This document shows, one piece after another, positions 5,671 through 25,721 of a stretch of DNA of 34,250 nt. A program made the translations under genes and the position numbers. Below the pieces are notes generated by a model, which saw only the letters and a list, made by a program, of their open reading frames with translations, did no database searches and had not been told where the DNA came from. Within the stretch, counting starts at the first letter, position 1. Every line of letters begins with the position of its first letter. Source of the stretch: a virus; the IMG/VR virus record IMGVR_UViG_3300045003_000097, positions 1-34,250 of that record; one strand, written 5' to 3'.

Positions 5671-5680
5671 CCGGGCTCCT

Positions 5681-7205: not shown

Positions 7206-7209
7206 GGCT

Positions 7210-7366: not shown

Positions 7367-7386
7367 AAACTCTTCCCCATCCCCGG

Positions 7387-8027: not shown

Positions 8028-8243
8028 CTGCTCCCGAACGGCAGAACCCTGAGGGGTCGGGAGGGAAAGCGATTGCCGACCGCGACCTAGAAGAAGTCGG
8101 CGTTCCGACCCGTATATCCTCCTCCGGATGGTGGAGGAACGGTAACAAAGTCGGAATAACCAGGTAGCCGGTTTTGGTAGCCCCTTTGACCGGCGAGGAA
8201 TCGTGCTCCCGCGGACAATGGGGTATCTGGCGTCGTGACAAAG

Positions 8244-8272
8244 GTTAGATTCAAGGTAACGACGAAAATCAA
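8244..8272 (-). promoter_or_regulatory. possible sigma70-like promoter
   Basis: TTGATT (8267-8272), 17-base spacer, TCTAAC (8244-8249) on the minus strand; four of six matches in each box. It follows the terminator at 8325-8343 and would drive the structured region and genes beyond. Confidence 0.35.
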
Positions 8273-8324
8273 CCACCCTTGGAGACTCAGTGGTACCCGG
8301 AACCCGTACCCGTAAGACGCACTG

Positions 8325-8343
8325 AAAAAGCCCCAAAGGGGCT
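8325..8343 (-). terminator. rho-independent terminator after the clamp loader
   Basis: Minus strand AGCCCC-TTT-GGGGCT followed by TTTTT: a perfect six-base GC stem with a tight loop and T-run, about 70 bases after the clamp-loader stop. It ends the large operon running from 19.8 kb or from an unseen promoter within it. Confidence 0.85.
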
Positions 8344-8414
8344 AGTGTCCCCCTACCCACCCCGAAGACCTTACCAATTAACTGATTCAAACGAATGAAC
8401 GGGATCACGATTAC

Positions 8415-9389
8415 CTACCCCGGTTTGGAAACCACTTCATAGCAGGCCCGGATCAGGGAAGCCTTTTTCCCATCGTAGAAGTTGGACTCGAAAGCGTTAA
8501 TGATCCAGTAAGCTCGGGCTGATAACTTCCCCCCCGATAGCAGGATGGTAGAGGCATAGGACAGGATCATATGTCGCAGGGATTCCGGCTCTTCATCTAC
8601 CGATTTCAGGATCGGAGCCATGTCAGACCACTTAGTACGGGGATCGAGCAGGGCCCGGGCTATCTCGATGGACTTATGTTTGGCATCAGTCCTTTGGATA
8701 AGGTCTAGACGAGCCTTATCCTCTTCCAACTGGAGGACCTGGTGAAGGAGAACAAGAGCCTTCCGGGCCGAGCCCTCCGAGGCTTCGGCTAACCGGGAAG
8801 CAAGCTCCTCCGACAGGGAAGCTCCCTCCTTCTCAGCAACCGAGCATACCAACTCCTGGATCACATCGACGGTAATCGGGGACAACCGGACCTCCGTACA
8901 GCGAGTGTGGATGGTCTTCAGGAGCTTCCCCGGGTCCGTGGTGGCCAAGATAAAATAGACGTGTCTGGGGGTATCCTCCAGCATCTTCAGGAGGGCCTGC
9001 TGGGCAAAAGTGGCCCGGCTGAGCGACTGTACCTCGTCAAGATACCAGATCCGGCAAGGACCGAACACGGGAGATAGACCCATCCGGATCTGGATAGACC
9101 GGACCGTCTCCATAGCCCCTTCGACAGAAGCACAATTAACTTCGGCATAGTCCGTCCGGCTGCACTTCAACCTCTTACAAAGGATGCGGGCGATGGTGGT
9201 CTTGCCCACCCCGGAGGGGCCGGTCAGGAGCAGGGTATGGGGCACCTTCCCCGAGGCCAGGAAGCCGGAGAGGGTCTTGACGGCCTCCTCCTGGCCCACC
9301 AAGTCCTTGAGCCGTTTGGGCCGGTAGCGGTGGTACAGCTCCAGCCCGTCGTCCCCGTTCCTCTCCGGCTGCTGCTCTAGTACGGTCAT
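8415..9389 (-). CDS. clamp-loader ATPase (DnaX/RFC-like)
   Basis: 324 aa from ATG 9389, chosen over an upstream in-frame codon because GAGGGAG precedes it and the longer version would overlap the previous gene. AAA+ features in order: YRPKRLKDLVGQ box at 22-33, Walker A GPSGVGKT at 57-64, Walker B WYLDEV at 115-120, sensor 1 ATTD at 149-152 and an HTRC motif at 161-164 equivalent to the SRC arginine-finger motif of DnaX/RFC. The C-terminal third is helical, as in the collar domain. It loads the sliding clamp (19950-21080) on primed DNA. Lacks the zinc cysteines of bacterial DnaX, like many phage forms. Confidence 0.88.
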   Translation of the reverse strand: MTVLEQQPERNGDDGLELYHRYRPKRLKDLVGQEEAVKTLSGFLASGKVPHTLLLTGPSGVGKTTIARILCKRLKCSRTDYAEVNCASVEGAMETVRSIQIRMGLSPVFGPCRIWYLDEVQSLSRATFAQQALLKMLEDTPRHVYFILATTDPGKLLKTIHTRCTEVRLSPITVDVIQELVCSVAEKEGASLSEELASRLAEASEGSARKALVLLHQVLQLEEDKARLDLIQRTDAKHKSIEIARALLDPRTKWSDMAPILKSVDEEPESLRHMILSYASTILLSGGKLSARAYWIINAFESNFYDGKKASLIRACYEVVSKPG

Positions 9390-9397
9390 GTTCTCCC

Positions 9398-10309
9398 TCA
9401 CTTCCCACAGAAGAACCCACAACTCGTCACCGACAGCAAGTCTTCCGGGTCTTTGGCAGCCCTCCGGTCCCGGAGGACCTTGAGGATCTGGACCACCCGC
9501 TTCCGGACGATCCTCTCCCGATTCTGCCTAATCCAGTCCAGGGGCTTCCCGGCGATCCAGGTGTAGGGCTGGTCCCGGCGCTCCCCCTGGGAACCAGCAG
9601 CCCCGATCCTCCCCTCGATCTCCTCCGCCTTAGAGAATAGGTCCGGGTGGTGCTCCAGGAGCCCGGCCCACTCGTACTGCCTCTGGAAGAAGCACAGGAA
9701 GCAGTTACTCCTAGTCCTCCAGGCAAACAGGCTGTCGAAGACCCAGCGGGGCAGGGAGCCCAGGACCTCGTCGGCCGGGGGGAGCAGCCGGAACCCCCCC
9801 CTATGCTTTCGCTCCAGGGCTTCCCGGACCAGATCGTGGACCCGCTGCCAGAAGAACGTCGGGGGCCGGAGGTCCGCTTTATCGAGGATAGCGTAGACCA
9901 TCGGCAGGTCGATCCCCAGCTCCTGCAGCGGGTAGGTCGGGAAGATGTTCGCCTTCCCCTCCCCGTAGCCGGCCCGGTCCTCGTCGGCCCTCAGACCGAA
10001 GTAGACGGTGGCCGGGTCCTTCCCGATCCACTTCTCCATGGGCCGGATCTTCCCCTGCCGGGTGCAGAACCTCATCTGCGGGGACGGGAGCATGTCCTCC
10101 CGGACGATGATCTGCTCCAGGGACTTCCCGATCCGGACCAGGGGCCTGCCCAACCGCTCCTCCACCCGGTCTAGCCAGGCATAGGTCTCCGGTAACTCAC
10201 AGCCCACATCGTTAAAAAACAACTCATAAGGTAAATCCGGCTGCCGGGCGATCTGGACCAGGGCCGTGGCACAGGAGTCCTTCCCGGAGATGGGGATCAG
10301 GTGTCTCAT
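9398..10309 (-). CDS. second PP-loop enzyme, PAPS reductase-like superfamily
   Basis: 303 aa. PISGKDSCAT at residues 6-15 is a PP-loop (SGKDS). CTRQGKIRPME near residue 82 and the early substrate-loop region fit phage PAPS reductase-family proteins. Extra cysteines occur as CFLC near 213 and in the extreme C-terminus SCGFFCGK, which could ligate a metal or Fe-S cluster. True assimilatory PAPS reductases end in a catalytic ECGLH motif, which is absent. The role may be ATP-dependent sulfur or amine transfer on a nucleotide or RNA/DNA; not determinable here. Lies between a nucleotidyltransferase and the clamp loader, with short gaps of 3 and 8 bases. Confidence 0.75.
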   Translation of the reverse strand: MRHLIPISGKDSCATALVQIARQPDLPYELFFNDVGCELPETYAWLDRVEERLGRPLVRIGKSLEQIIVREDMLPSPQMRFCTRQGKIRPMEKWIGKDPATVYFGLRADEDRAGYGEGKANIFPTYPLQELGIDLPMVYAILDKADLRPPTFFWQRVHDLVREALERKHRGGFRLLPPADEVLGSLPRWVFDSLFAWRTRSNCFLCFFQRQYEWAGLLEHHPDLFSKAEEIEGRIGAAGSQGERRDQPYTWIAGKPLDWIRQNRERIVRKRVVQILKVLRDRRAAKDPEDLLSVTSCGFFCGK

Positions 10310-11644: not shown

Positions 11645-12649
11645 TCACTCCTCCTCTTCCCCGGAAGCCTTCCCCAGCCGGAAGCCGGTCCTCATCTTCC
11701 GGTCCAGGGCTTCCAGGTTGCGGACGGCCATCCTGTGGTAGGAGGGCTTCAGCTCGACCCCCAGCCCCCGCCTCCCCGACCGGACGGCCATGTAGACCGT
11801 ACTGCCCACCCCCGAGAAGGGGTCCAAAACAACGTCGCCCGGCCGGCTCCACAGCTCCAGGCACCGCTGGACCACGTCGAGCTGCAGGGGGCAGATGTGG
11901 CGGACGTCGTCCGGGTCCCTCCCCCCCTTGAACGGGAGCACCTTCGTTTGTCTAATGTCGTCCCACACCGGGGAGGCGTACCGCTGCCAGATCCAGTGGC
12001 TCCGCTTGTTCGTGTGCTGGTCCTTGTGGCCCAGGTAGCGGTCCAGGGTGCCGGGGACCGCCCGGGCCCCGTGGTACTCGGTCAGGCCGTCCGGGTGGGG
12101 GATCGGGGCCGGGTTCTCCCCCTTCTTCCGGAAGGCCAGGACGTAGTCGGGGATGCCCGTCCGGCACAGGGCCGAGTCCTTCACGAGCTGCTGGTGGGCC
12201 AGGCCCACGGCCTTGGTCCGGGTGGCCGCCACCAGGGGGTCCTTCCAGATGACGAAGCGGGAGTGGTACACGAAGCCGGCCGCCTCGTGGCAGCGGATGA
12301 TATCCCCGGGGAAGTCCTTCAGTCCGATCTCCTCCCCGTTGACCTTGAACGTGGGCAGGTCCATGCAGTGGGCGGCCGCGACCCTCCCGGGCATCAGGAG
12401 CCGCTCCGTCTCCCGGACCACGTAGCCGTAGTGCTCGAAGAACTCCTCATAGTCCTTACTGTTGGATAGGTCCCGGGGGTCATCCGAGTATGAAAACAAC
12501 TGAGCGAAGGGAGGTGAGTACAGGATCAGTCCAACCGTTTCGGCTGGCAGCTGGGGGAGGACGGAGCAGGAGTCTCCCAGGAACAGGGAGTACCGCTCCG
12601 TCTTGACGGACTTCCCCCGGCTCACCTTCTCCGCCCGTTGCCCAGCCAT
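11645..12649 (-). CDS. amino-group DNA methyltransferase (N4-C or N6-A)
   Basis: 334 aa, ATG 12649 with GGAGG eight bases upstream. Catalytic motif IV is SPPF at 45-48; the SAM-binding motif I, DPFSGVGST, is at 276-284, so the order is catalytic then SAM (beta-type permutation). SPPF/SPPY favours N4-cytosine methylation over N6-adenine (usually DPPY), but does not prove it. Transfers methyl from SAM to a base in DNA, probably for protection against host restriction; no restriction nuclease is adjacent, so it looks solitary. The 5' end overlaps the helicase gene by 28 bases. Confidence 0.85.
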   Translation of the reverse strand: MAGQRAEKVSRGKSVKTERYSLFLGDSCSVLPQLPAETVGLILYSPPFAQLFSYSDDPRDLSNSKDYEEFFEHYGYVVRETERLLMPGRVAAAHCMDLPTFKVNGEEIGLKDFPGDIIRCHEAAGFVYHSRFVIWKDPLVAATRTKAVGLAHQQLVKDSALCRTGIPDYVLAFRKKGENPAPIPHPDGLTEYHGARAVPGTLDRYLGHKDQHTNKRSHWIWQRYASPVWDDIRQTKVLPFKGGRDPDDVRHICPLQLDVVQRCLELWSRPGDVVLDPFSGVGSTVYMAVRSGRRGLGVELKPSYHRMAVRNLEALDRKMRTGFRLGKASGEEEE

Positions 12650-13986
12650 GCCGGCACCTCCACTTCCTCACTCTCCAGAAACCCGTTCCCACCCGTCACT
12701 CGTAAAACTTCCTTCATGGAGGCGATGATCCCGTCGTACATAGCCGACATCTGCCGCTCCTTCAGGAGCAACCCGTCCACCACCCTTCGCTCCGCCTCCG
12801 AGGAGACCACGTGGACCGTTACCTCCCTCTCCTGCCCGAACCGCCAGCACCGCCGGATGCACTGGTAGTACGACTCCATGGACCACGACGGGAAGTAAAT
12901 AACGTCGGAGCAGTGCTGCCAGTTGAGCCCCCAGCCGGCCAGGACAGGCTTGGAGACCAGGACCCGGACCTGCCCCTGGGAGAAGGCGTCTAGCCTTTCC
13001 TCCTTCTCTTCATCGGTATGTCTCCCGGCGACCTGGACGGCGTCGGGGATCAGCTTCTCTAATAAATCCCCCTCAGGATTCAAGTGGCAGAACAGGACGC
13101 AGGGCCGGTCCTCCGGGACCAGGGAGGCGGCCAGCTCACACCTGGCTTGCAAGGTGTCCCGCCGCTCCCTCCTCTGCTGGTTTAGAGTCCGGGCCAGGGT
13201 CGGGAAGAAGCCCCCGTTAGCCTTGCTGGGGACGGTGTGGTGCTTCACCCTCAGCGGGGGCAGCTGGAAAGCCCCGTCCGGGAAGCCCAGGTCGGAGGGC
13301 TTCCGGCAGGCCCTCGCCCAGCCGGCTACCCACTGCCAGAACCGCCTCCGGGCATGGCCCTTCAGCTCCCACTTGCTTCCCGTGTTCTGGGGCCCCATCA
13401 GGGGGGAGAAGAACGTCCCCAGCATCCGGGCCTTGGTCACGACTCCCAGAACGTCGGAGGAGGAGCCCAGCTCGACATAGTCGTTGGGAGCCGGGGTAGC
13501 CGTAGCCAGCAGACGGTACGGGAGCCTGTGGGCGAAGGCCGACACGAACTTTCTGGTCTGGGAGTCAAAATCCTTGCAGCACCCGACCTCATCGCAGATG
13601 ATCCCGTCAAAGTCGGCCGGGTCCAGGTGGTGGAGCCTCTGGTAGTTCAGGACGTTGATCCCCGGCCACAGCTTCTTCCCCTTGATCCGGTGGGCCTCTA
13701 CCCCGAACTTTTCGGCCTCCCTTATCATCTGGGGACCGACGGCCAGGGGGGTCAGGAGCAGGACCCGGCCGCTCGTCTTCCGGACCACGTTCTCCCCGAA
13801 GATACACTCCATCGCTGATTTGCCCAGCCCGCAGTCGCACAGGAGGGCTCCCCTCCCGGTCCGGACGGCCCACTCGGTCAGGACCCTCTGGAAGTCAAAC
13901 AGCTTGGGAGACAGCCACAGGGGCTCGAACCCGGCCGGCTTCCTCTGCTGCTCCTTGACCTTCAGGAATTCCGAATAGCTCTTCAT
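12622..13986 (-). CDS. SNF2/DEAD-like superfamily 2 helicase
   Basis: 454 aa from ATG 13986, overlapping the polymerase stop (ATGA). Motif I DCGLGKSA at 51-58, motif II DEVG at 132-135, motif III TATPAPND at 162-169, motif V VLAGWGLNWQHCSDVIYF and motif VI CIRRCWRFGQ in the C-terminal RecA-like domain. The QRxxRxGQ-like motif VI (here RRCWRFGQ) is typical of SNF2-family translocases. Motif II has DEVG instead of DEAH/DEAD. Placed directly after the polymerase it probably remodels forks or displaces proteins. Confidence 0.85.
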   Translation of the reverse strand: MKSYSEFLKVKEQQRKPAGFEPLWLSPKLFDFQRVLTEWAVRTGRGALLCDCGLGKSAMECIFGENVVRKTSGRVLLLTPLAVGPQMIREAEKFGVEAHRIKGKKLWPGINVLNYQRLHHLDPADFDGIICDEVGCCKDFDSQTRKFVSAFAHRLPYRLLATATPAPNDYVELGSSSDVLGVVTKARMLGTFFSPLMGPQNTGSKWELKGHARRRFWQWVAGWARACRKPSDLGFPDGAFQLPPLRVKHHTVPSKANGGFFPTLARTLNQQRRERRDTLQARCELAASLVPEDRPCVLFCHLNPEGDLLEKLIPDAVQVAGRHTDEEKEERLDAFSQGQVRVLVSKPVLAGWGLNWQHCSDVIYFPSWSMESYYQCIRRCWRFGQEREVTVHVVSSEAERRVVDGLLLKERQMSAMYDGIIASMKEVLRVTGGNGFLESEEVEVPAWLGNGRRR

Positions 13987-15536
13987 GCTGCCTTCGGCCC
14001 CCACAGACCGTCCTCCCCCCGGACCCAGGGGCTCTTGTCTGCCCACGTCTTACCCAACCCGACCACGTCAATTTCCACAAGTAAGGGGACGATCAGCCAG
14101 TCCCACGCCTTGCGGATATCGGAAGTCATGACCCGTTCGATCAGGTCCAGGACCTCCTGTAACTCCTCCGGGGGTACGTCCAAAAGTAGGCAATCATGGA
14201 TTTGTCCTACGATCAAACTCTTCAGTCTCCTCTTCCGAAGGATCTTCTGGATGCGGATCAGGGACCAGAGCAGACAGTGGAAGGCAGGTCCCTGGACCGG
14301 GTCGTTCAGCAGGTTGTTCCGGCTGCATAGGCCCCCCTTGCCCCAGACCACCTCGAAGCCCGTCACCAGGGAGGACCGGCCCTCCCGCTCGTAGTCGGCG
14401 AACCTCTGCTCCTTGCCGGCCGCAAAGACCGGGAACCGCCGGTAGAAGTTCGCCTCCACCGCCTTGACGTGGGCCTCGTAGGAGCCCGGCCGGGGGTCCC
14501 GCTTCGGGTCGAAGTCTCCCGGGGAGCGGATGCCCTGCCTCCGGAGCCACCTCGCCACCAGGGTCTCGTCGTCCTTCATCTTGACCCCGGGGATGGCCTC
14601 CCAGATGTTCCGGGCCATCTGCAAGTAGTAGGAGCCGTACAGGGTGGGGAACACGAACTGGTTCTTGGCCAGGTAGCGCATCTGCTTCGACACCTGGGAC
14701 GGTTCGCATAGGAACAGCTCGGCCGCCGAGTCCCGGTGGATATCCTTGCTGGGGTCCGAGGCATAGGCCACCATCTCCGGGTCCTTCCAGACGCAGGCCG
14801 CGATCTTGAACTCCATGGCCCCGAAGTCTGCCTCTACCAACAGCCGGCCCGGCCGGGGGACAAAAGCCTTCCTGATCAGGGGTCCGATCTTAGAATCCCG
14901 GATGGGGATGTTGTGCAGGTTCGGTGAGTCTGATGAGGACCTGAAAGTACGGACCGTATTCAGGTTCTCCGTGGGGTGCAGGAACCCGTCCACCACCTCC
15001 CGCCGGACCCCCTCCAGGTAGGTAGACTTGAGCTTCTTTAGCCTCTCCACCGCGAGCAGGGTCTTGACGAAGGGCAGGTCCACGGAGGCCAGGGCCGCCT
15101 CGTCCGTGGACGGCTTACCGTCCGGGTAGCGGTCCGTGGGGGCCGTCCGGAACGGGCAGGGGTAGCCCAGCCTCTCGTACAGGACCACCCCCAGCTGCTC
15201 CCGGGAGCCCAGGTTGGTCTTAGCCCCGAACGCCTTCCGCCAGACCCCGTAGGTCGGGTCCCTCCGCAGCTCCTCCTGGAGGGAGCGGATCTGGTCCCCC
15301 ACCTCGACGATGGTCCGGTCCAGGTAGTCCACGTCGATGGCGATACCGGCATCCTCGACCTCGGCCAGGGCCAGGGTCCCCTCTAGGAGCAGGTCCACGG
15401 CTTCCAGGGTAGCGGTCACTCTCACCTCCTCGGGCCGGACGGGTACTCGTATCTCATCCGAATCCGTACGGAAACTCCTACCCTCTATGCCGATGCTCCG
15501 GAGGACCTTCCTCACTACTCTTTCCGATACCCCCAC
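13983..15536 (-). CDS. family A DNA polymerase lacking an exonuclease domain
   Basis: 517 aa from GTG 15536, with GGGGAG just upstream. Thumb region near 105-175 (STDEAALA, LKKLKSTYLEG), then SSSDSPNLHNIP at 200-211, motif A VEADFGAMEFKIA at 234-246 with catalytic D237, motif B around RYLAKNQFVFPTLYG at 287-301, and motif C QIHDCLLLDVP at 445-455 with D448. Only about 65 residues precede the thumb, so there is no room for a 3'-5' exonuclease; a fitting one is encoded at 17739-18947. Motif B departs from the usual KxxxNFGxxYG: one extra residue and Pro instead of Gly. The first 20 residues match a nested protein at 26454-27005. Confidence 0.88.
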   Translation of the reverse strand: MGVSERVVRKVLRSIGIEGRSFRTDSDEIRVPVRPEEVRVTATLEAVDLLLEGTLALAEVEDAGIAIDVDYLDRTIVEVGDQIRSLQEELRRDPTYGVWRKAFGAKTNLGSREQLGVVLYERLGYPCPFRTAPTDRYPDGKPSTDEAALASVDLPFVKTLLAVERLKKLKSTYLEGVRREVVDGFLHPTENLNTVRTFRSSSDSPNLHNIPIRDSKIGPLIRKAFVPRPGRLLVEADFGAMEFKIAACVWKDPEMVAYASDPSKDIHRDSAAELFLCEPSQVSKQMRYLAKNQFVFPTLYGSYYLQMARNIWEAIPGVKMKDDETLVARWLRRQGIRSPGDFDPKRDPRPGSYEAHVKAVEANFYRRFPVFAAGKEQRFADYEREGRSSLVTGFEVVWGKGGLCSRNNLLNDPVQGPAFHCLLWSLIRIQKILRKRRLKSLIVGQIHDCLLLDVPPEELQEVLDLIERVMTSDIRKAWDWLIVPLLVEIDVVGLGKTWADKSPWVRGEDGLWGPKAA

Positions 15537-15736
15537 GGGCTCCCCCCTTTCTTTGCCGTCTCCCGGCCGTCCCGGGAAATGAGCCGGCACCAGACGGAAA
15601 ACGCCAGCAGGAAGGTCCCCCTGGGGTAGTTCCCGGAGTGGGCCTCCTGCATGGCCGCCACGAACAGGACCAGGCTCCCGACCCCTAGCAGGAGTGGGCA
15701 AACTTCGTCCACTACCTTCAAAACGGTCCGGATCAC
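15515..15736 (-). CDS. small membrane protein (73 aa)
   Basis: GTG 15736 overlaps the thyX stop (GTGA) and follows GGGAGG. A hydrophobic stretch VCPLLLGVGSLVLFVAAM (about 11-28) and a second moderately hydrophobic one near 45-55 suggest one or two membrane spans; the C-terminus is basic. The 3' end overlaps the polymerase start by 22 bases. Function unknown. Confidence 0.55.
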   Translation of the reverse strand: MIRTVLKVVDEVCPLLLGVGSLVLFVAAMQEAHSGNYPRGTFLLAFSVWCRLISRDGRETAKKGGSPWGYRKE

Positions 15737-16509
15737 GGGGCCTCCCTCCCGCACTCGCAGAAGGCCCGGTAGGTCAGGGGCCAGTGCTCGGCGAACGGCC
15801 CCTCGCACTTCCGGGCCGCCGCCTCGATCTCATAGAGCGGATAGCTGGGGTGGTTAGCCCCGGGCTCGTGGGTCCGGAGGGACAGGAAGGCCATCATCGA
15901 GCGGGGGTTACACGTCACCCAGCAGGAGGAGTAGACCCCGACCGGCAAGCAGTCCCGGGCCAGGCCAGGGTCAATCCCCAGGGCCAGGTTCTCCTCGTAC
16001 TTCCGGTAGGCTAGCTCGTAGGACTCCCGGAGGTTGTCGCACAGGACCCGGTAGACGGAATCCCCGTAGGACGGCCGGGTCATACCCGGGGGATACCTCT
16101 CGTCGATGGTCAGGAACTTCGGCCGCCCCGGCTTCCAGTCATCTACCTTGAGCATCGGCCGGTCGCGGGGAGGGACGTAGAAAACCGGCTCCAGGACCGA
16201 GTAACGCCCGCTCTGCTCATTAAAAGACTGGACCCTGTGCCTGTGCCACTCCCTCCAGACCAGGATCGGAGCGTGGACGAAGAACGTCATAGACCCGTGT
16301 TCAAAACAACTACCGTGCTTCATCCTCATGAGGTAACGGATCAGACCGTAGTTATCCTCGGCCCTCCCGGGGTCAGAGAAGGCCAGGGCCTCCTCCCCGG
16401 AGACGGAGACCTTAGCCGCCGCTATGACGGAGTAGTCCCCCCCGACCTGCTGGACCAGTCGGACGGTAATGTCACTAGTACACCGGACCTCAGTCTTCTG
16501 GTCACCCAC
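15733..16509 (-). CDS. thyX: flavin-dependent thymidylate synthase
   Basis: 258 aa from GTG 16509, with GGAGGAAGGGAA before it. The ThyX signature RHRxxSxNEQSGRYS is complete at residues 90-104, and the FAD/dUMP-binding helices continue with CNPRSMMAFLSLR near the C-terminus. ThyX makes dTMP from dUMP with methylene-tetrahydrofolate, FAD and NADPH. Phages carry it to supply dTTP. Given the likely thymine/cytosine hypermodification genes at 21-26 kb, a pyrimidine-supply link is possible but not shown. Overlaps the DUF1643 gene by eight bases. Confidence 0.93.
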   Translation of the reverse strand: MGDQKTEVRCTSDITVRLVQQVGGDYSVIAAAKVSVSGEEALAFSDPGRAEDNYGLIRYLMRMKHGSCFEHGSMTFFVHAPILVWREWHRHRVQSFNEQSGRYSVLEPVFYVPPRDRPMLKVDDWKPGRPKFLTIDERYPPGMTRPSYGDSVYRVLCDNLRESYELAYRKYEENLALGIDPGLARDCLPVGVYSSCWVTCNPRSMMAFLSLRTHEPGANHPSYPLYEIEAAARKCEGPFAEHWPLTYRAFCECGREAP

Positions 16510-17026
16510 TTCCCTTCCTCCACAACTGGGGCTTAGTGTCCCCCTTAACGTACAGGGGGTGCCGGGGGTAGCCCTGCTTCGTTAGACCTAAGCAGTAAAG
16601 GTCTACCCCCCGAAGCATGTCCAGGACCTCCCGGTCCCGGGCGAAGGGGACCGACGCCCCCCAGGCACAGACCACCAGGTCAGCCTCAACGGCTGTCCGG
16701 AGGTGGTCATTCCAGCCCGGGCCGACCGGGTCCTCCGCGTCCAGCAACTCCCCCGGGTCCGTGGCCCGGAGGGCGAACAGGTTCAGGACGGCCAGGGAGG
16801 AGTAGCCCCAGGACCGGGTAAAGCCCGCGCACCTCCGGACGGTCGGGTCATCCACCAGGGCGTCAGCCGTACTGGGGTTGAGCATGACGAAGCAGACTTC
16901 CCGCCCGTCCCCGCCACGGGCCCACTGCCTGTGCAGCCAGTAGCGGTACTTTCCACACCCGGACAGGGCGGCCGCCCGGCTCAGGTCGGAGTATCCGGAA
17001 GACAGCCCCCGAAAGAATCCGGGCAC
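16502..17026 (-). CDS. DUF1643 family protein
   Basis: 174 aa, GTG 17026 with GGGGGGA upstream. It matches DUF1643 along its length as I know the family: KYRYWLHRQW near 26-35, FVMLNPSTADALVDDPTVRRC at 46-66 (outline), VLNLFALRATDP, CAWGAS and YPRHPLYV near the end. The biochemical function of the family is not established; it is common in phages and mobile elements. Two bases separate it from the preceding gene. Confidence 0.85.
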   Translation of the reverse strand: MPGFFRGLSSGYSDLSRAAALSGCGKYRYWLHRQWARGGDGREVCFVMLNPSTADALVDDPTVRRCAGFTRSWGYSSLAVLNLFALRATDPGELLDAEDPVGPGWNDHLRTAVEADLVVCAWGASVPFARDREVLDMLRGVDLYCLGLTKQGYPRHPLYVKGDTKPQLWRKGSG

Positions 17027-17028
17027 GG

Positions 17029-17298
17029 CTAATAATCCCCCCAGGAAAGGTCCCTAGGATCGGGGACCGGCCCGCCCTTCGGCCTCCGCTCCTCCTCCAT
17101 GATCCGGGCAATCTGCTCCGCCTCTACTACCTGCTCATCCCCGGGCTGGTTCTTGCCGTGGGCGATCCTCCGGGAGATCCAGTAGCGGATGGTAGCCGGG
17201 GCGTTCTCGTCCCTCCCCAGGAGGACGAAGACCATCTCACTGTCCCGGGCCCTATTCAGACAGGAGTTCGGGTCAGTTAACTCATCTCGCTTCCTCAT
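17029..17298 (-). CDS. small conserved phage protein (89 aa)
   Basis: ATG 17298 overlaps the upstream stop (ATGA) and follows GGAGGAAGGAG. The core CLNRARDSEMVFVLLGRDENAP (shown in part), IRYWISRRI and NQPGDEQVVEAEQIARIMEEE fits a small family very common in phage genomes whose role is not known. Soluble, no metal site. Confidence 0.7.
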   Translation of the reverse strand: MRKRDELTDPNSCLNRARDSEMVFVLLGRDENAPATIRYWISRRIAHGKNQPGDEQVVEAEQIARIMEEERRPKGGPVPDPRDLSWGDY

Positions 17299-17504
17299 GA
17301 CTTCTTCTCCTTCCTCCACATACCCAGGATATGATCGACGGCGTTCACGGGGGTCTCGGGATCTTTTACGTCCAGCACCCACTTCAAAGCTACTTTCAGC
17401 CCGATCAAAATACCCCGCAGTTCCCCATCGGCCTTCTCCCATTTGGCCTTGGAGAACTCCAGCAAATCTATCAGGGCTTCCAGGATCTCCCTCTCGGTCT
17501 TCAC
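17295..17504 (-). CDS. small helical hypothetical protein (69 aa)
   Basis: GTG 17504 with GGGGAG upstream. Helical, with LEALIDLLEFSKAKW and GILIGLKVALKWVLDV segments; basic C-terminus MWRKEKKS. Probably a small soluble binding protein. Stop overlaps the next ATG. Confidence 0.55.
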   Translation of the reverse strand: MKTEREILEALIDLLEFSKAKWEKADGELRGILIGLKVALKWVLDVKDPETPVNAVDHILGMWRKEKKS

Positions 17505-17508
17505 GGCC

Positions 17509-17721
17509 TCAGTTCTCCCCCACGTTCTTCCGGGAATCCTCGATATCCCGGGCCTTCTTTAGGAGCAATCCGGCGACGTTCCGGGCCTCCTCCGGGGTAA
17601 AATGAATCCACCACTTCGGATCGGTGAACTGGACAGAGACATAGTTATAATCTTCAGTAATTCCGACGATTAAAGTCCCCGGACCCCGCACCTCATCAAC
17701 CGGATGTTTCTCCCGATCCAT
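17509..17721 (-). CDS. small hypothetical protein (70 aa)
   Basis: ATG 17721 is chosen over a longer frame because GGGGGG lies six to eight bases before it. The beta-rich first half (TLIVGITEDYNYVSVQFTD, then WWIHFTPEEARNVAGLLLKKA) and the closing helix resemble small phage proteins with an HFTPEEA segment. Not assigned. Confidence 0.55.
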   Translation of the reverse strand: MDREKHPVDEVRGPGTLIVGITEDYNYVSVQFTDPKWWIHFTPEEARNVAGLLLKKARDIEDSRKNVGEN

Positions 17722-17738: not shown

Positions 17739-18947
17739 CTATAGTCGGAAGCCCATCTCTTCCATCTGGAGCCTGGCCAGCTCCCACTCCAGCAGGGAGT
17801 CGGCCCCGCAGTACGCGAGAAGTTTATCCATGGCCACCTGGCAGACCCGGTTCCGGGCGTTGGAGTTGGCCGCCTTCAGGTAGGGGGCTACCTGCTCATC
17901 GTAGGGGCCGACTCCCAGCCGGGCAAACGCCTGGAACTTCAGGCCGGTGATCCCCGGCCGGTTGTCGAGGACGTGCGCGGCCAGCATCGTGTCCCAGACC
18001 CAGTTCCGGACCCGGAGGCCCAGGACGGCCATGGAGTACCGCTGTTCATACTTGACGTTCGCCCCGCACTTGGGGACCTCGGACCGGAGGAACTCTTTCA
18101 TGGCCCGGACCGCCTCCCCCACCCAGGGGAAGGCTATGGTCGTCTCCCCGTCGCTTAGGGAGCAGCAGACAATCCCGGCCTCCGGCCCGTCCGGCTTCAG
18201 GGTAGACGCCTCGTAGTCAAAGGCCGTCAGCCGGCTCCCCCCCGCCAGCCTCCGGATCTCAGAGGCCGCCTCCTCCGGGTCGTAGAGGCAGCGGACCTGT
18301 CGGAGGGGGTCGGGGACCGGCTCCGGCCACGGTCTCCCGGAGCACTCCCCGGCTGTCCTCAAATGGTCCCGGAACATCCTCTCCAGGAGGGCGTACTCCC
18401 GCTTGCCCTGGGAGCGGAGCAGGAAGGACGGGTGCCAGGTGGGGCAGACCCAGGCGTTGACCTTCCGGGCCGGGACCTTCCACTTCACCCACCGGCCCAC
18501 CGGCCCCACGTCCTCCTTCCACAGCCACCCTACGACGCTCTGGACGGCCCCGGCCCCCAGCAGGATGATCGTCTCCGGCCCCAGCTCCTTGATCGCGTTC
18601 ACGACGTTCGGTCGGCAGTGGAAGACGGCCTTCTCCGGTAGGGCGTTGTGGGGTGGCCGGCAGATCGCCGAGTTCGTCACCCAGCAGTCCCGGAACAGGT
18701 CGATGCCCGCGGCTGCCAGGTGGCCCTGGAGGTACTGGCCGGAGGGCCCCACGAACGGCCTCCCCTGGGAGTCCTCCTCTGCTCCCGGTGCCTCTCCACA
18801 GACCAGGATCTTCCGCCGGCCCTCCCCGGCCACCGGCATCTTAGGGGACTGGCAGGTGAGGTGGAGCCGGCACTTGTGGCAGGCCGGCTGCAAGGGGACC
18901 CGGGCCCGGACCGTCTGGAGGGAGGAGGCAAGGAAGAAGCCGGCCAT
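17739..18947 (-). CDS. fusion of family 4-like uracil-DNA glycosylase and PolA-type 3'-5' exonuclease
   Basis: 402 aa from ATG 18947. N-terminal UDG domain (about 20-200): C23, C26, C96 and C111 fit the 4Fe-4S ligand pattern of family 4 UDGs; GEAPGAEED at 51-59, GRPFVGPSG at 62-70, TNSAICRPP at 91-99 and HPSFLLR at 172-178. C-terminal exonuclease (about 235-402): exo I FDYEAST with D244 and E246, exo II GANVKYE at 295-301, where the usual Asp is Glu, and exo III YCGAD with Y379 and D383. The second domain equals the proofreading domain missing from the polymerase at 13983-15536. The UDG removes uracil from DNA; the fusion would join uracil detection and proofreading. Confidence 0.8.
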   Translation of the reverse strand: MAGFFLASSLQTVRARVPLQPACHKCRLHLTCQSPKMPVAGEGRRKILVCGEAPGAEEDSQGRPFVGPSGQYLQGHLAAAGIDLFRDCWVTNSAICRPPHNALPEKAVFHCRPNVVNAIKELGPETIILLGAGAVQSVVGWLWKEDVGPVGRWVKWKVPARKVNAWVCPTWHPSFLLRSQGKREYALLERMFRDHLRTAGECSGRPWPEPVPDPLRQVRCLYDPEEAASEIRRLAGGSRLTAFDYEASTLKPDGPEAGIVCCSLSDGETTIAFPWVGEAVRAMKEFLRSEVPKCGANVKYEQRYSMAVLGLRVRNWVWDTMLAAHVLDNRPGITGLKFQAFARLGVGPYDEQVAPYLKAANSNARNRVCQVAMDKLLAYCGADSLLEWELARLQMEEMGFRL

Positions 18948-19949: not shown

Positions 19950-21080
19950 CTACTCCGACTCCTCCTCGTGGTTCCCCACCGGGACCCGCTCCTTCTTCCT
20001 CTTCTTCGGATGGGGGGCCGGCTCCCCGTCCTCCTCCGGGGGCATCTCACCCTCCGTATTGCTCCCCTCCGGCAGGGTCAAACATGAGACGAACACGTAG
20101 GAGCCGGAGACCACTTTTAGCCGCTCGGCCGAGATCAGGCAGTCGGAGTGCTTCTTCACCAGGTCCATGAGGATCTGGGGGGCCACCAGGAACTTGATGG
20201 CCGGGCCGGCGTACTTCACCTTCCGGTCGCTCCGGTACCAGCCCGTGATACCTGTCCCCTTCAGGGTCAGGCGGCCGGGCTTCAGCTCGATGAGCACCGC
20301 GTCCCCCTCGGCGTTCTCGGAGGTGAAGACCTTGGCCTTGTCGGCCTCCTCCGCCAGACCCTTGGGGAGCATGGCCGGCTCGCCCCCCACCTCCAGGATC
20401 TCCCCCAGGTCCGGGAAGTCGTTCTCGAAGTACCGGCGGCAGGACAGGACCAGCTTGGCGGGGGAGCGGAAGTGGAGCCAGGTCTCGGTCTCGGCCACCT
20501 CGGTCATGCCCAGCCCCGCCACGTGCTTGACGGCCGACTGCCTCACCAGGGTGGGCTTGGCGATGGGGGTCTTCAGGTTCCAGCGGCACAGTTGGTAGTT
20601 ATCACAGGCCTCAATCCAGTCCGGGGTCAGGTTCACGCAGGTCAGGGCGAACTGGGACTCGTCCCGCCCGGCACAGGCCTGGACCACGGACACGGCGTCG
20701 GCGAACTCGGGGGGCAGGGCCTTCCACCTCTTCGGGATCTCCACGTCCTTGATGGGCAGGAGCACGTCAGCCTCCATCCGCAGGCCGCAGGCCCGCCGCT
20801 TGCCGGTCAGGACCAGCTCCCCCTCCCCGGCCGAGACCTCCAGCTCATCCTCGGGAAGCTTGCGTAGGATGGCCAGGAGGGGCTCGGCCTGGACGGCTCC
20901 CGTCAGCTCCTCCTCCAGCCCCGAGGGGCAGTGGCAGGCCACCTCCTCGTTGTAGGCGAACACCTTACCGGACTGGAAGACATAGCAGCTGCTCTGCTCA
21001 ACGATCTCCTTCTTCGAGACCCCGGGCAGGACGGACTCCAGGGCGCGGAGGAAGGTCTCCCTGCTGACGTAGGATGGCAT
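19950..21080 (-). CDS. DNA sliding clamp (DnaN/beta-like)
   Basis: 376 aa from ATG 21080, five bases after the upstream stop. Length and pattern match beta clamps: a first domain with LRALESVLPGVSKKE and LLAILRKLPEDELEVS, a middle domain with KHVAGLGMTE, and a C-terminal domain with GWYRSDRKVKYAGPAIKFL and LPEG near the end in place of the usual MPMR. The last about 35 residues are a charged extension (KKRKKERVPVGNHEEESE) not seen in cellular clamps. It tethers the polymerase to DNA and works with the loader at 8415-9389. Followed at once by a strong terminator. Confidence 0.75.
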   Translation of the reverse strand: MPSYVSRETFLRALESVLPGVSKKEIVEQSSCYVFQSGKVFAYNEEVACHCPSGLEEELTGAVQAEPLLAILRKLPEDELEVSAGEGELVLTGKRRACGLRMEADVLLPIKDVEIPKRWKALPPEFADAVSVVQACAGRDESQFALTCVNLTPDWIEACDNYQLCRWNLKTPIAKPTLVRQSAVKHVAGLGMTEVAETETWLHFRSPAKLVLSCRRYFENDFPDLGEILEVGGEPAMLPKGLAEEADKAKVFTSENAEGDAVLIELKPGRLTLKGTGITGWYRSDRKVKYAGPAIKFLVAPQILMDLVKKHSDCLISAERLKVVSGSYVFVSCLTLPEGSNTEGEMPPEEDGEPAPHPKKRKKERVPVGNHEEESE

Positions 21081-21085
21081 AGGTA

Positions 21086-22225
21086 TCACGTTCCTTTCTG
21101 CTTTGGTTTTCTGCGGACCAGCTCCATACCGTAGTCGTCGTCTCCGACCCTCCTCACGATGCCGGGCCGGAGGCGGAGCCGGTTCCGCCTAAAGGGCGAG
21201 TAGTCCACCAGGTGGTGCCAGCGGTTGAACCGCCAGACTACCTTCACCACGTCCGGGTGCTGGTCCCGGAGGGACTCCGCGAAGGCCAGCCGGTGGTCAT
21301 CCGTCTTGTACACGGTGTCGGTGTTCCCGCCCTTCATGGCCCGGGCCCCCTTGCACCCGGCCGTGTCGAGCTTCCTCATGAGCAGGGCCCGGAAGAGCAA
21401 CGTGACGTACCCGTCCTTGAGGACCCTCAGGGACAGGTCCGTATCCTCGTTGTACTTCCCCCGCCAGCGGTAGGGCAGGGACGTGTCGATCAGGATGCAG
21501 GAGTAGACCCGGCTGTTGAGGAGGAAGGGGGACAGCCGCGGCTCCCGGTCCATGACAAAGCCCACGTGGTGGGGGCCGGCCAGGGCCACGTTCTCGTAGC
21601 GGTCCACGAAGTCCTCCATGGCCAGGAAGAACCTCCCCCCGTGTACGGACAGGCGGCGGTTCTGGGTAGTCCGGTAGAAGTTGCGGATATTGTCGTCAAC
21701 TACCCAGTGCCTCCTGTGGCCGTTCTCCCTGGCCCACTCCCAGATGAAGTTCCGGGCCGGGATCGAGCCCTGGCCCAGGTCGTGGAAGGGGAGCTTGACT
21801 ACCTTGTCCTTCCCCAAGTGGCGGCAGTACCTCTTGTACTCCGTTTCCTCCACGAAGAACCTGTGGCTGACCCCCAGGCGGTCCAGGGCCCTCCCGGTAG
21901 TCTGGCAGTCCCAGCGGCCCTTGCTGGGGATACAGACCGGGTAGCGGCTATCCGCCTTGGGGCCGTCCCAGTAGAACTCGCCGCCGGAGAGGACCCCCTG
22001 GTCCGGGTACCAGGCCGTGTCGGAGCGGGCCGTCACGCGGAGCCCGGTCACCCTCGCGAACTCCTCCACGTCCTCCTTGGTCATGAAGTTGACCGTGATC
22101 GCGTAGTTGGGCCGGGCGTTGCCCATGGCGAAGCTGGGCATCCCCCACCACTCGGTCCGCCAGTCCGGCTCCAGGTCCAGCAGGCCCATCCTCGGGGGGT
22201 GCGTCTTCCGGGGGGGAACCTCCAT
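21086..22225 (-). CDS. TET-associated-type GT-A glycosyltransferase, copy 1
   Basis: 379 aa from ATG 22225, after a tandem GGAGGTA repeat that supplies ribosome sites. Glycosyltransferase core: YPVCIPSKGR at 95-104, LGQGSIPARNFIWEW at 150-164, the metal-binding HWVVDDNI at 173-180, EDFVDRYENVALAGPH at 204-219, RWRGKYNEDTDLSLRVLKDGY at 253-273 (outline), GGNTDTVY and a WHHLVDY-type segment near 340. This matches the TAGT family described by Iyer and colleagues (2013) for phage base hypermodification, which is predicted to sugar-modify oxidised pyrimidines in DNA. Residues 1-90 form an extra module (ITVNFMTKEDVEEFARVTG). The closest relatives are the two copies downstream in the window; copy 3 has 60-70% identity by eye. 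Confidence 0.75.
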   Translation of the reverse strand: MEVPPRKTHPPRMGLLDLEPDWRTEWWGMPSFAMGNARPNYAITVNFMTKEDVEEFARVTGLRVTARSDTAWYPDQGVLSGGEFYWDGPKADSRYPVCIPSKGRWDCQTTGRALDRLGVSHRFFVEETEYKRYCRHLGKDKVVKLPFHDLGQGSIPARNFIWEWARENGHRRHWVVDDNIRNFYRTTQNRRLSVHGGRFFLAMEDFVDRYENVALAGPHHVGFVMDREPRLSPFLLNSRVYSCILIDTSLPYRWRGKYNEDTDLSLRVLKDGYVTLLFRALLMRKLDTAGCKGARAMKGGNTDTVYKTDDHRLAFAESLRDQHPDVVKVVWRFNRWHHLVDYSPFRRNRLRLRPGIVRRVGDDDYGMELVRRKPKQKGT

Positions 22226-22260: not shown

Positions 22261-22825
22261 ACTTCCGGAAGCCGAACCCGACCGGCTTCTTCGTCCTCCG
22301 CCCCCGGTAGGCGTGCAGCTTGCGGGCAAGGCGGCCGGCCTTACCCAGGGTCGTCAGGGAGACCCAGACCCAGTTCCGGGCATACTCGGGGCCCCACCTC
22401 TCCCGGAAAGCCGCGAAAATCGCCTCAAACTCCGGGGTGTAGGGCAGCTGGTCCCTGGTCAGGGGCTGGGCGTCGTAGGCTTCCACGAGGTGGCGGACCA
22501 TGGCCGGGGACAGGTTCGAGCCGCGGGCCGGGCCCCGCCTCTTCCCGGAGGTCCTGATCTCCACCCCGCCGACCCGGTAGTGCTGCTTCCTCAGGTAGAG
22601 GCAGCGGTAGTAGACCCCGGCCTCCGTCCCCCAGGGGTGGCCGGGGTGGGCCGCCCGGTAGTCTATGGCCAGCTGCCCCAGGTCCGGGGCATAGGCCCAC
22701 CGCTCCGGGTCGCCGGGGATCTCGGCGGAGTAGACGGCCAGCCAGGCGTCGTCCCACCAGTGTCCTTCGGGATCTCGGGCCACGGGAGTCTTCTCCTTTC
22801 CACCTTCGCTGGTACGGCCGGTCAC
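22259..22825 (-). CDS. hypothetical protein inside the glycosyltransferase cluster (188 aa)
   Basis: GTG 22825 overlaps the stop of glycosyltransferase copy 2 (GTGA) with GGAAGGG before it, so the two are co-translated. Tryptophan- and tyrosine-rich N-terminal half (HWWDDAWLAVYSAEIPGDPERW, shown in part), no metal motif, no membrane span; C-terminus strongly basic (RGRRTKKPVGFGFRK), as in DNA-binding tails. Not recognised. Its place between two glycosyltransferases suggests a part in the same modification. Confidence 0.65.
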   Translation of the reverse strand: MTGRTSEGGKEKTPVARDPEGHWWDDAWLAVYSAEIPGDPERWAYAPDLGQLAIDYRAAHPGHPWGTEAGVYYRCLYLRKQHYRVGGVEIRTSGKRRGPARGSNLSPAMVRHLVEAYDAQPLTRDQLPYTPEFEAIFAAFRERWGPEYARNWVWVSLTTLGKAGRLARKLHAYRGRRTKKPVGFGFRK

Positions 22826-23952
22826 GAACCCTTCCGGACCAGCTCCATACCGTAGTCGTTATTCCCCTCCACCCTCACCACCCCCGGTCTAGGAACCAGC
22901 CGGTTCTTCGCGAACGGGGCATAGTTCACCTCATGGTGCCACCTGTTAAACTTCCAGACTACCTTTACTACGTCCGGGTGCTGCTCTCTTAAAGATTCGG
23001 CGAAGGCGAGACGGTAGTCCCCGGTATTGTAGACCGTATCCGTATTCCCGCCCTTCATAGGTTTGTTATTCCTAGACCCCGCCGTACCGGGTTTACACAT
23101 ACATAGGGCACGGAATAGAACGGTACAGTAGCCATCCTTGAGCAGGCGTAGGGATAAATCGGTATCCTCGTTATAACGGCCCCGCCACCTATAGGGGAGT
23201 AACGTATCGAGTAGAATAAAAGAGTATACCCTACTATTTAATAAGAATGGGGTAAGTCTCTGGTTCCGGTCCCGGACAAAGTTCCTATCGTGGGGCCCCG
23301 CCATAGCGACGTTCTCGTACCTATCCACGAAGTCCTCCATGGCCCGGAAGAAACCCCCGCCACGAACTAATAACTTCCGGTTATTCGTCGTCCGGCAGCA
23401 GTGTTTGATATTATCGTCCACTACCCAGTGCCTCCTGTACCCCCTCTCCTTACACCACTCCCAGATGAAGTTTCTAGCCGGTATGGAACCCTGTCCAAGA
23501 TCATGGAAGGGGAGTTTGACTACCTTCTCCTCTCCGAGATGCCGACAGTATTCCTCATACTCGGTCTCCTCCACGAAGAAGCGGTAGCCGACTCCGAGCC
23601 GGTCCAAAACTTTCCCGGTCAGCTGGCAGTCCCAGCGCCCCTTGCTGGGGATGCAGACGGGATACCTGGAGTCGGTCTTGGGTCCGTCCCAGTAGAACTC
23701 CTCTCTCGACAAAACTTCCTGATGGGGATACCAGGCCGAATTGGACTGAGTTCTAATTCTCAAACCGGCTACTCTAGAGAACTCTTCCATGTCCCCCTTC
23801 GTCATGAAGTTAATGGTTATCCGGTAGTTAGGTAGGGTATCTTCCATAGAGAAACTCGGCATCCCCCACCACTCGGTCCGCCAGTCAGGATCTATGCACA
23901 GGAACCCCCTGTCCCGGATATGTGACCTCTTCTTACGGGGGGGAACATCCAT
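22822..23952 (-). CDS. TET-associated-type GT-A glycosyltransferase, copy 2 (A/T-rich)
   Basis: 376 aa. It keeps all core motifs of copy 1: YPVCIPSKGR, LGQGSIPARNFIWEW, HWVVDDNI, the RWRG-YNEDTDLSLR-LKDGY block and GGNTDTVY. After VVDDNI it has KHCCRTTNN where the other copies have RNFYRT, a local change near the likely substrate site. Codons are clearly A/T-richer than in copies 1 and 3 (about 43% GC against 67% over a matching 60-base stretch, hand-counted), although the proteins are alike. ATG 23952 follows GGAAGAGGTAGG. Probably adds a sugar to a modified base in phage DNA; substrate unknown. Confidence 0.75.
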   Translation of the reverse strand: MDVPPRKKRSHIRDRGFLCIDPDWRTEWWGMPSFSMEDTLPNYRITINFMTKGDMEEFSRVAGLRIRTQSNSAWYPHQEVLSREEFYWDGPKTDSRYPVCIPSKGRWDCQLTGKVLDRLGVGYRFFVEETEYEEYCRHLGEEKVVKLPFHDLGQGSIPARNFIWEWCKERGYRRHWVVDDNIKHCCRTTNNRKLLVRGGGFFRAMEDFVDRYENVAMAGPHDRNFVRDRNQRLTPFLLNSRVYSFILLDTLLPYRWRGRYNEDTDLSLRLLKDGYCTVLFRALCMCKPGTAGSRNNKPMKGGNTDTVYNTGDYRLAFAESLREQHPDVVKVVWKFNRWHHEVNYAPFAKNRLVPRPGVVRVEGNNDYGMELVRKGS

Positions 23953-23961: not shown

Positions 23962-25083
23962 CTACCTCTTCCGGACCAGCTCCATACCGTAGTCGTTCTC
24001 ACCTACTGTCCTCACGATACCCTCCCGGAGCCGCAGCCGGTTCCTCCGGAACGGTGCGTAGTCTACCTTGTGGTGCCAGCGGCCGAACCTCCACACCACC
24101 TCCACGCAGTCGGGGTGCTGGTCCCTCAGGGACTCCGCGAAGGCCCGCCGGTAGTCCCCGGTACTGTAGACCGTATCCGTGTTCCCGCCCCGCATGGGTC
24201 TCACGCCCCGGGAGCCGGCCGTGTCCGGCTTATCCATGCACAGGGCGTTAAAGAGTAGGGTCGCGTACCCGTCCTTGAGCAGGCGGAGGGACAGGTCCGT
24301 GTCCTCGTTGTAGCGGCCCCTCCACCTGTGGGGCAGAGAGGTGTCCAGGAGGATACAAGAGTAGACCCGGCTGTTGAGCAGGAAGGGGGACAGGCCCGGG
24401 TTCCGGTCGTCCACGAAGGCGATGTCGTGGGGGCCCGCCATGGCGACGTTCTCGTAGCGGTCCACGAAGTCCTCCATGGCCCGGAAGAACCCGCCCCCGC
24501 GGACCGTCAGCCTCCTGTTGCCGTTCGTCCGGTAGAAGTTACGGATGTTGTCGTCCACGACCCAGTGGCGTCCGTATCCCCTCTCCCTGCACCACTCCCA
24601 GATGAAATTTCTAGCTGGTATGGACCCCTGCCCTAAATCGTGAAAGGGGAGCTTAACCACCCTCTCCCGGCCGAGGCTAGAGAAGTAGTCCGCGTACTCC
24701 GTCTCCTCCACGAAGAACCTATAACTTACCCCGAGCCGGTCCAGGATCTTCCCGGTCAGCTGGCAGCCGGCCCGCCCCTTACTGGGGATGCAGACCGGGT
24801 ACTTAGAGTCAGTCTTCGGGCCGCCGTAGTAGAACTCTCCGGCCCGGAGCCGGTCCCGGGCCGGGTACCAGGCCGAGTCCGACTTCGCCGTCACCCGCAG
24901 GCCGGAAACCTCGGCGAACCGCTCCACGTCACCCCTAGTCATGAAGTTCACCGTGATAGAGTAGCCCGGCCGGGCGTCCCGCATGGAGAACGCGGGCATC
25001 CCCCACCAGTGCTTCCTCCAGTCCTGTTCCAGGTCGAGGAGGCCGGACGCCTTCGGGCGGATATCCTTCGGCGGGACCTCCAT
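23962..25083 (-). CDS. TET-associated-type GT-A glycosyltransferase, copy 3
   Basis: 373 aa from ATG 25083, two bases after the stop of the UDG-like gene, whose end supplies GGAGGGGG. The same core motifs as copies 1 and 2 are intact, including the DDN metal site and the NEDTDLSLRLLKDGY block, so all three look active. Differences cluster at residues 1-95 (FYYGGPKTDSKYP) and in the sugar- or base-contact loops. First of the three in transcription order, with GC-rich codons like its neighbours. Confidence 0.75.
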   Translation of the reverse strand: MEVPPKDIRPKASGLLDLEQDWRKHWWGMPAFSMRDARPGYSITVNFMTRGDVERFAEVSGLRVTAKSDSAWYPARDRLRAGEFYYGGPKTDSKYPVCIPSKGRAGCQLTGKILDRLGVSYRFFVEETEYADYFSSLGRERVVKLPFHDLGQGSIPARNFIWEWCRERGYGRHWVVDDNIRNFYRTNGNRRLTVRGGGFFRAMEDFVDRYENVAMAGPHDIAFVDDRNPGLSPFLLNSRVYSCILLDTSLPHRWRGRYNEDTDLSLRLLKDGYATLLFNALCMDKPDTAGSRGVRPMRGGNTDTVYSTGDYRRAFAESLRDQHPDCVEVVWRFGRWHHKVDYAPFRRNRLRLREGIVRTVGENDYGMELVRKR

Positions 25084-25541: not shown

Positions 25542-25721
25542 TCAGTCCTGCTCCGGGGCCGCCTGCTGCTGGAGATCGAAGACCTCCTGCCGCTGGACGG
25601 AGACGTCCCTGGGGGCGTCGATCCCCAGCTTGACCCTGCCGTCCCGAATTTCCAGGACCTCAATACTGATGTCGGGGCCGATGCGGATGCGCTCCCGGAC
25701 CCTCCGGCTCAAAACGAGCAT
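25542..25721 (-). CDS. csrA: CsrA-type RNA-binding regulator
   Basis: 59 aa, ATG 25721 with GGGAGG four bases upstream. Full-length match to CsrA: MLVLSRRVRERIRIG at 1-15, V30-K-L-G-I-D-A-P-R-D at 30-39, VSVQRQEVF at 40-48. The RNA-contact residues L4, R6 and R44 are kept. CsrA dimers bind GGA motifs, often over ribosome sites, and block or alter translation. In this window it may act on phage mRNAs that carry the GGAGAYGATTCC leader, on host mRNAs, or both. The 5' end lies within the last 13 bases of the FkbM-type gene, so its own ribosome site is in that coding sequence. Confidence 0.93.
   Translation of the reverse strand: MLVLSRRVRERIRIGPDISIEVLEIRDGRVKLGIDAPRDVSVQRQEVFDLQQQAAPEQD

What the first reader, a model, noticed from the sequence alone, without database searches (positions are those of the whole stretch)
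17739..18947. Uracil-DNA glycosylase fused to the proofreading exonuclease missing from the polymerase
The polymerase has no room for a 3'-5' exonuclease, and this fusion carries a PolA-type one. The phage seems to have split its replicase and joined proofreading to uracil detection. It could act in trans with the polymerase and stop or edit at uracil.
Basis: partly seen in the sequence, partly recalled or inferred. Interest (0 to 1): 0.75.

Follow-up and report, generated by a model that had tools for sequence, protein, structure and literature searches.

The report
Phage proofreader split from its polymerase
This virus, and a large group of uncultured relatives, makes its DNA-copying enzyme as two separate proteins, a polymerase with no proofreader and a proofreader joined to a uracil-removing domain, and the proofreader's first few residues look like a hook onto the virus's own sliding clamp.

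Summary
ORF 17739-18947 (-) encodes a family-4 uracil-DNA glycosylase (UDG) joined to a PolA-type 3'-5' exonuclease. The family-A polymerase (about 13983-15419, -) has no exonuclease. What is new here is a clean cut between exo and pol.

The cut is old and widespread. In IMG/VR relatives, 62/62 polymerase-seeded loci have the UDG-exo and 71/71 UDG-exo-seeded loci have the polymerase, nearly always as separate genes. The one fusion (two contigs) is nested in the tree and looks like a re-fusion. Exonuclease residues are essentially invariant in 114 proteins; UDG catalytic residues are lost in about 15%. The window's UDG site is intact.

One-piece UDG-exo-pol phages with an adjacent clamp start the same way (15/15 loci); those without one do not. 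Best reading: a proofreading subunit held on the phage clamp, functionally like Pol III epsilon. Clamp binding and proofreading in trans are inferred. A uracil checkpoint is possible but untested.

The parts
17739..18947 (-). UDG-exonuclease fusion protein, 402 aa
18933..18947 (-). N-terminal short motif MAGFF (proposed sliding-clamp-binding motif) on a disordered ~20-residue tail
   Evidence: the function is inferred
18330..18890 (-). family-4 UDG domain (Fe-S Cys 23, 26, 96, 111; active-site E52, F65, N92, H172 all present)
17748..18314 (-). PolA-type 3'-5' exonuclease domain (D244, E246, E301, D319, Y379, D383)
13983..15419 (-). family-A DNA polymerase without exonuclease (478 aa from GTG 15419; GTG 15536 is an alternative start)
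19950..21089 (-). sliding clamp (PHROG 947, DNA polymerase processivity factor), upstream of the UDG-exo
8415..9422 (-). clamp loader (PHROG 5846; DnaX-like ATPase)
15515..17721 (-). genes lying between the two halves: small ORFs, DUF1643 protein (16502-17026), ThyX (15733-16509), small ORF ending at 15515
12622..14046 (-). DNA helicase (PHROG 62; Pfam Helicase_C) next to the polymerase

Best explanation
The phage replicase is a SPO1-type UDG-exo-pol family-A polymerase cut into two subunits at the exo/thumb domain border. Shown: the two genes are the two halves of one enzyme; the polymerase half has no exonuclease; the pairing is obligate in the lineage; the exonuclease active site is under strict conservation. 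Inferred: the UDG-exo is the proofreading subunit and works on the polymerase's primer end in trans. It is held at the fork by its disordered N-terminal GFF motif bound to the phage sliding clamp, and probably also docks where the exonuclease sits in the one-piece enzyme. This would be functionally like the epsilon subunit of bacterial Pol III. The UDG domain is probably an active family-4 glycosylase in this phage, so the same clamp-held subunit could remove uracil near the fork, but in the family as a whole it is partly reduced to a structural or DNA-binding role.
For: PHROG 17 maps the two proteins end to end. The UDG-exo model aligns to Klenow 324-518. Polymerase palm/finger motifs are invariant and there is no exonuclease. 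Obligate pairing 62/62 and 71/71. Exonuclease D/E/E/Y/D 113-114 of 114. Single fission lineage, one nested fusion L152 confirmed in a second contig, L181; its predicted structure is a UDG placed on a Klenow-like exo-pol (pLDDT 91.1; Klenow TM 0.82). Clamp gene upstream 81/84, often 5-45 bases away. N-terminal FF within 9 aa of a start codon 84/107 against 6/959 other ORFs, in a tail whose other residues vary and which is predicted disordered. One-piece polymerases with an adjacent clamp (MAR10/ZHS type) start M-[GSA]-F-[FY] in 15/15 loci, while those without a neighbouring clamp do not. The window carries a clamp and a clamp loader. Precedent: Pol III epsilon binds the clamp by a short motif and needs it for optimal proofreading (PMC3642679).
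Against: No binding or activity data. GFF is not the canonical Qxx(L/M)xF clamp motif. PaBG has a clamp but no N-terminal GFF; it has an internal QLGLF instead. About 6% of family members with an intact N-terminus show neither FF nor a close variant. Motif II Asp (Klenow D424) is Glu throughout the family; activity of that variant was not tested here. Co-variation of UDG-exo and polymerase distances did not exceed permutation (r 0.28; distances nearly saturated). No complex could be modelled with these tools.
Confidence: 0.68

Rival explanations
1. The UDG-exo is a stand-alone repair enzyme (uracil removal plus 3' end trimming) that does not proofread for the polymerase.
For: The UDG active site is intact in the window and in most relatives. 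The genes can lie up to 4.7 kb apart. Genome records do hold UDG genes with no polymerase gene beside them, e.g. L172 and L173.
Against: Exonuclease residues are kept where UDG residues are lost; pairing with an exo-less polymerase is obligate; the two halves are one polymerase by homology; one lineage fused them again.
Confidence: 0.12
2. The UDG-exo docks directly on the polymerase and rebuilds a Klenow-like enzyme; the GFF tail binds something else (SSB, primase or helicase), and the clamp is only a neighbour.
For: The natural fusion L152 folds as Klenow with exo and pol in the usual places; in about 40% of loci the polymerase frame overlaps the end of the UDG-exo gene, which suggests coupled translation.
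Against: The GFF start tracks an adjacent clamp gene across split and one-piece forms.
Confidence: 0.15
3. The halves are joined after all, by ribosomal frameshifting, a self-splicing intron or trans-splicing, so the split is only apparent.
For: In L001-L005 the two frames overlap by a few to about a hundred bases; phages SP8 and Youna2 have interrupted polymerase genes, with an HNH homing endonuclease in SP8.
Against: In the window 2.2 kb with ThyX, DUF1643 and other genes lie between; across 112 loci the gap runs from overlap to 4.7 kb; the polymerase has its own start and ribosome-binding site; the cut is at the exo/thumb border throughout the family.
Confidence: 0.03
4. An assembly error or decaying gene: the exonuclease was cut off by mutation, as the authors suggested for the lone viral exonuclease ExnV1.
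For: A stand-alone viral exonuclease from a metagenome was called a truncated gene (PMC9629493).
Against: Same split in over 100 distinct loci from many samples, with invariant catalytic residues in both halves.
Confidence: 0.01

Closest known systems
One-piece UDG-exo-pol phage polymerases (SPO1/SP8, PaBG gp205, Thermus phage phiLo, PDB 9qhs)
   Same: Same domain order and homologous domains (PHROG 17; 9qhs is the top Foldseek hit; PaBG described in PMC7412058)
   Different: Those carry exo and pol in one protein; here they are separate genes. The SP8-, PaBG- and phiLo-type ones lack the GFF start
Vibrio phage MAR10 / Edwardsiella phage ZHS polymerases
   Same: UDG-exo-pol, clamp gene directly upstream, N-terminal M-[GSA]-F-[FY], Glu in exonuclease motif II
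   Different: Not split; the MAR10 UDG domain has lost most UDG motifs
DNA polymerase III epsilon (DnaQ) with the beta clamp
   Same: Separate proofreading subunit paired with an exo-less polymerase; clamp-held by a short motif (PMC3642679)
   Different: DnaQ is a different exonuclease family and Pol III is family C; the motif is QTSMAF just after the catalytic domain, not an N-terminal GFF; epsilon has no UDG
Human UNG2 (from memory)
   Same: UDG whose N-terminal tail holds an FF motif and binds the sliding clamp PCNA
   Different: Unrelated UDG family, no exonuclease; resemblance of the tail is a lead only
ExnV1 (PDB 7r0t)
   Same: Stand-alone PolA-type 3'-5' exonuclease from a viral metagenome
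   Different: No UDG; read by its authors as a truncated polymerase; no partner polymerase described
Group 1 jumbo phage polymerases without fused exonuclease
   Same: A separate 3'-5' exonuclease gene is proposed to join the replisome (PMC7824862)
   Different: A different, divergent polymerase group; no UDG fusion mentioned

Membership tests
Family-4 uracil-DNA glycosylase | UDG superfamily fold | tested here: met
   PF03167 74.7 bits, cut-off 24.3; Z 22.9-23.9 to family-4 UDGs
Family-4 uracil-DNA glycosylase | Four Fe-S cluster cysteines | tested here: met
   C23, C26, C96, C111 in the window; 113-114 of 114 in the family
Family-4 uracil-DNA glycosylase | Active-site residues (T. thermophilus E41, F54, N80, H155; roles from memory) | tested here: met
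   All present in the window; in the family E 98, N 97, H 101 of 114, F54 is F in 48 and L in 50
Family-4 uracil-DNA glycosylase | NCBIfam TIGR00758 cut-off | tested here: not met
   97.6 bits, cut-off 125.3: a divergent relative, not filed as a standard family-4 enzyme
Family-4 uracil-DNA glycosylase | Uracil excision activity | not testable with these tools
   needs an assay
UdgX (covalent uracil-DNA binding) | NCBIfam TIGR03914 cut-off and KRRIH loop with His109 | tested here: not met
   81.6 bits against 189.95; no KRRIH in the sequence
PolA-type DEDDy 3'-5' exonuclease | Catalytic D, E, D, D plus Tyr | tested here: met
   D244, E246, D383, Y379 as in Klenow; motif II Asp424 is replaced by Glu301, invariant in 114
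PolA-type DEDDy 3'-5' exonuclease | Klenow exonuclease fold | tested here: met
   Z 22.0 to Klenow 324-518; Pfam PF01612 only 17.1 bits, below its cut-off of 23.6
Family-A DNA polymerase | Palm/fingers/thumb with motifs A, B, C | tested here: met
   PF00476 176.4 bits; motif A D..E, O-helix R/K/Y and HD invariant in 58 sequences
Family-A DNA polymerase with proofreading | Exonuclease domain in the same chain | tested here: not met
   Absent from the polymerase ORF
SPO1/PaBG-type UDG-exo-pol | Three domains in one polypeptide | tested here: not met
   Two genes 2.2 kb apart
SPO1/PaBG-type UDG-exo-pol | Domain order and homology | tested here: met
   PHROG 17 positions 475-827 and 832-1234
Clamp-held proofreading subunit (Pol III epsilon-like in function) | Separate exonuclease paired with an exo-less polymerase and a clamp | tested here: met
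Clamp-held proofreading subunit (Pol III epsilon-like in function) | Canonical clamp motif Qxx(L/M)xF | tested here: not met
   N-terminal GFF instead
Clamp-held proofreading subunit (Pol III epsilon-like in function) | Physical binding to clamp and polymerase | not testable with these tools
   only single chains can be modelled here

The most novel reading that the evidence does not exclude
A whole lineage of uncultured phages has rebuilt a family-A replicase on the Pol III plan: bare polymerase, separate proofreader, clamp and clamp loader. The proofreader also carries a glycosylase, so one clamp-held subunit checks both mismatches and uracil at the fork.
Probability: 0.35. Interest if true: 0.8.

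Novelty: new variant of a known kind. Interest (0 to 1): 0.58.

Why it matters
Family-A replicases normally carry proofreading in the same chain. A large phage group where the proofreader is a separate, apparently clamp-held subunit would show how a two-subunit proofreading replicase can arise by gene fission and be reversed by fusion. It would also explain why a clamp and a UDG domain occur together with these polymerases. It warns that lone viral exonucleases and exo-less polymerases in metagenomes may be halves of one enzyme, and it offers small separable parts (bare PolA, UDG-exo, clamp) for reconstitution.

Tried and rejected
(1) Exonuclease hidden in the polymerase N-terminus: rejected. 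(2) Stop between the UDG and exo domains: none. (3) Joining by frameshift, intron or assembly error: rejected. (4) UdgX-type covalent binder: motif absent. (5) Link of the split to the window's DNA-modification genes: TAGT glycosyltransferases not found in 8 other family contigs, which may be incomplete. (6) Mirror-tree test of co-evolution: r 0.28, not above permutation, saturated distances; inconclusive. (7) Host identification: only four hits in genome bins of unrelated phyla, likely binned virus contigs; host unknown. (8) A first mixed alignment for the fused model (A4) misaligned the UDG-exo rows and was replaced by A7. (9) Literature: fused UDG-exo-pol found (PMC7412058); no paper found in the held library describes the split form, but most subscription papers are not held.

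Full report
What was checked. The window is a 34,250-base virus record (G000). The minus-strand ORF 17739-18947 encodes 402 residues with no internal stop. Pfam and structure searches identify a family-4 UDG domain followed by a PolA-type 3'-5' exonuclease. The AlphaFold model has pLDDT 96.4 and pTM 0.92; residues 1-20 are its least ordered part. The exonuclease part covers Klenow residues 324-518, so the protein ends at the exo/thumb border. The polymerase ORF (mechanically 13983-15701) most likely starts at GTG 15419, after a strong ribosome-binding site, and begins at the thumb, as do 58 aligned relatives. PHROG 17, a one-piece phage polymerase family, aligns to the two proteins back to back.

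What is already known. UDG, exonuclease and polymerase in one chain occur in SPO1-like phages, in jumbo phage PaBG (PMC7412058) and in Thermus phage phiLo, whose solved structure 9qhs is the top structural match. So the UDG-exonuclease union is old. Cultured or deposited phages also show other breaks: MW202554 at the same place, Kuura before exonuclease motif III, RHph_TM39 inside the polymerase, and SP8 and Youna2 with interrupted polymerase genes.

How widespread the split is. Searches of IMG/VR with profiles of either half gave about 150 loci; 148 with both genes have them separate and one fused. Some loci come from the same contig; 114 non-redundant full-length UDG-exo proteins remain. With enough flank, 62 of 62 polymerase-seeded loci have the UDG-exo and 71 of 71 UDG-exo-seeded loci have the polymerase. 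The search patterns were taken from split members, so distant fused relatives are under-sampled. In a tree of 99 concatenated proteins the split forms of this family make one group; the fusion L152 sits deep inside it next to split L137 with full support, so it is most simply a re-fusion (quick method). A second contig, 97% identical, confirms the fusion. The predicted L152 structure places the UDG on a Klenow-like exo-pol.

Which activity is conserved. In 114 proteins the exonuclease residues are invariant or nearly so (113-114), with Glu in place of Klenow Asp424 throughout. The Fe-S cysteines are likewise kept (113-114). The UDG catalytic residues are kept in about 85% (E 98, N 97, H 101) and clearly lost in others such as L003 and L006. 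The window's UDG site is intact. Proofreading is therefore the common denominator; uracil excision is likely in this phage but not universal.

The clamp link. A sliding-clamp gene lies upstream of the UDG-exo in 81 of 84 loci with room to look, often 5-45 bases away. The window also encodes a clamp loader. The UDG-exo proteins begin M-x(0-4)-GFF: FF within nine residues of a start codon in 84 of 107, against 6 of 959 other ORFs; the rest of the tail is variable. The one-piece MAR10/ZHS-type polymerases, with a clamp gene directly upstream, start M-[GSA]-F-[FY] in 15 of 15 loci, although those loci are not all independent. One-piece polymerases without a neighbouring clamp do not. PaBG, which has a clamp, lacks the start but carries an internal QLGLF. 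I read the GFF tail as a clamp-binding motif. This is correlation, not proof.

Mechanism proposed. Bare polymerase plus clamp-held UDG-exo, the exonuclease removing mispaired 3' ends in trans, with the UDG domain able to remove uracil near the fork in members with an intact site. Pol III epsilon is the functional parallel: it binds its clamp by a short motif, and this is needed for optimal proofreading (PMC3642679). It is a parallel in how it works, not in family membership.

Verdict. Observation confirmed; interpretation half right. A new variant of a known replicase type with a testable clamp-tethering hypothesis.

Noticed in passing
window 21086-22225, 22822-23952, 23962-25083 (-): Three tandem paralogous TET-associated glycosyltransferases (PF20691, first copy tested; the copies are 73-75% identical), suggesting heavily modified DNA in this phage.
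   Followed up: partly
window 6025-6690 (-): Protein of the Mom family (PF25680, 77 bits), a DNA-modification protein of phage Mu type; further modification evidence.
   Followed up: no
window 26454-27914 (-): 486-aa protein with no PHROG or Pfam match, next to a methyltransferase (25709-26440) and the glycosyltransferases; could be the missing base-oxidising enzyme, untested.
   Followed up: no
L003 6571-9132: The exonuclease-less polymerase carries an intein with an HNH homing endonuclease inside its polymerase domain (PF14890, PF13392); other long polymerases (L022, L082, L083) may too.
   Followed up: partly
window 3499-5670 (-): 723-aa NUMOD4/HNH protein, unusually long for a homing endonuclease.
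   Followed up: no
L179 (PaBG) 5605-8703: The one-piece PaBG polymerase has no GFF start but has an internal QLGLF, a near-perfect canonical clamp-binding motif.
   Followed up: no
L176 (Caulobacter phage Kuura) 3986-7390: Polymerase split inside the exonuclease: motif III appears to lie at the start of the polymerase ORF, so the exonuclease would have to be assembled from two proteins.
   Followed up: no
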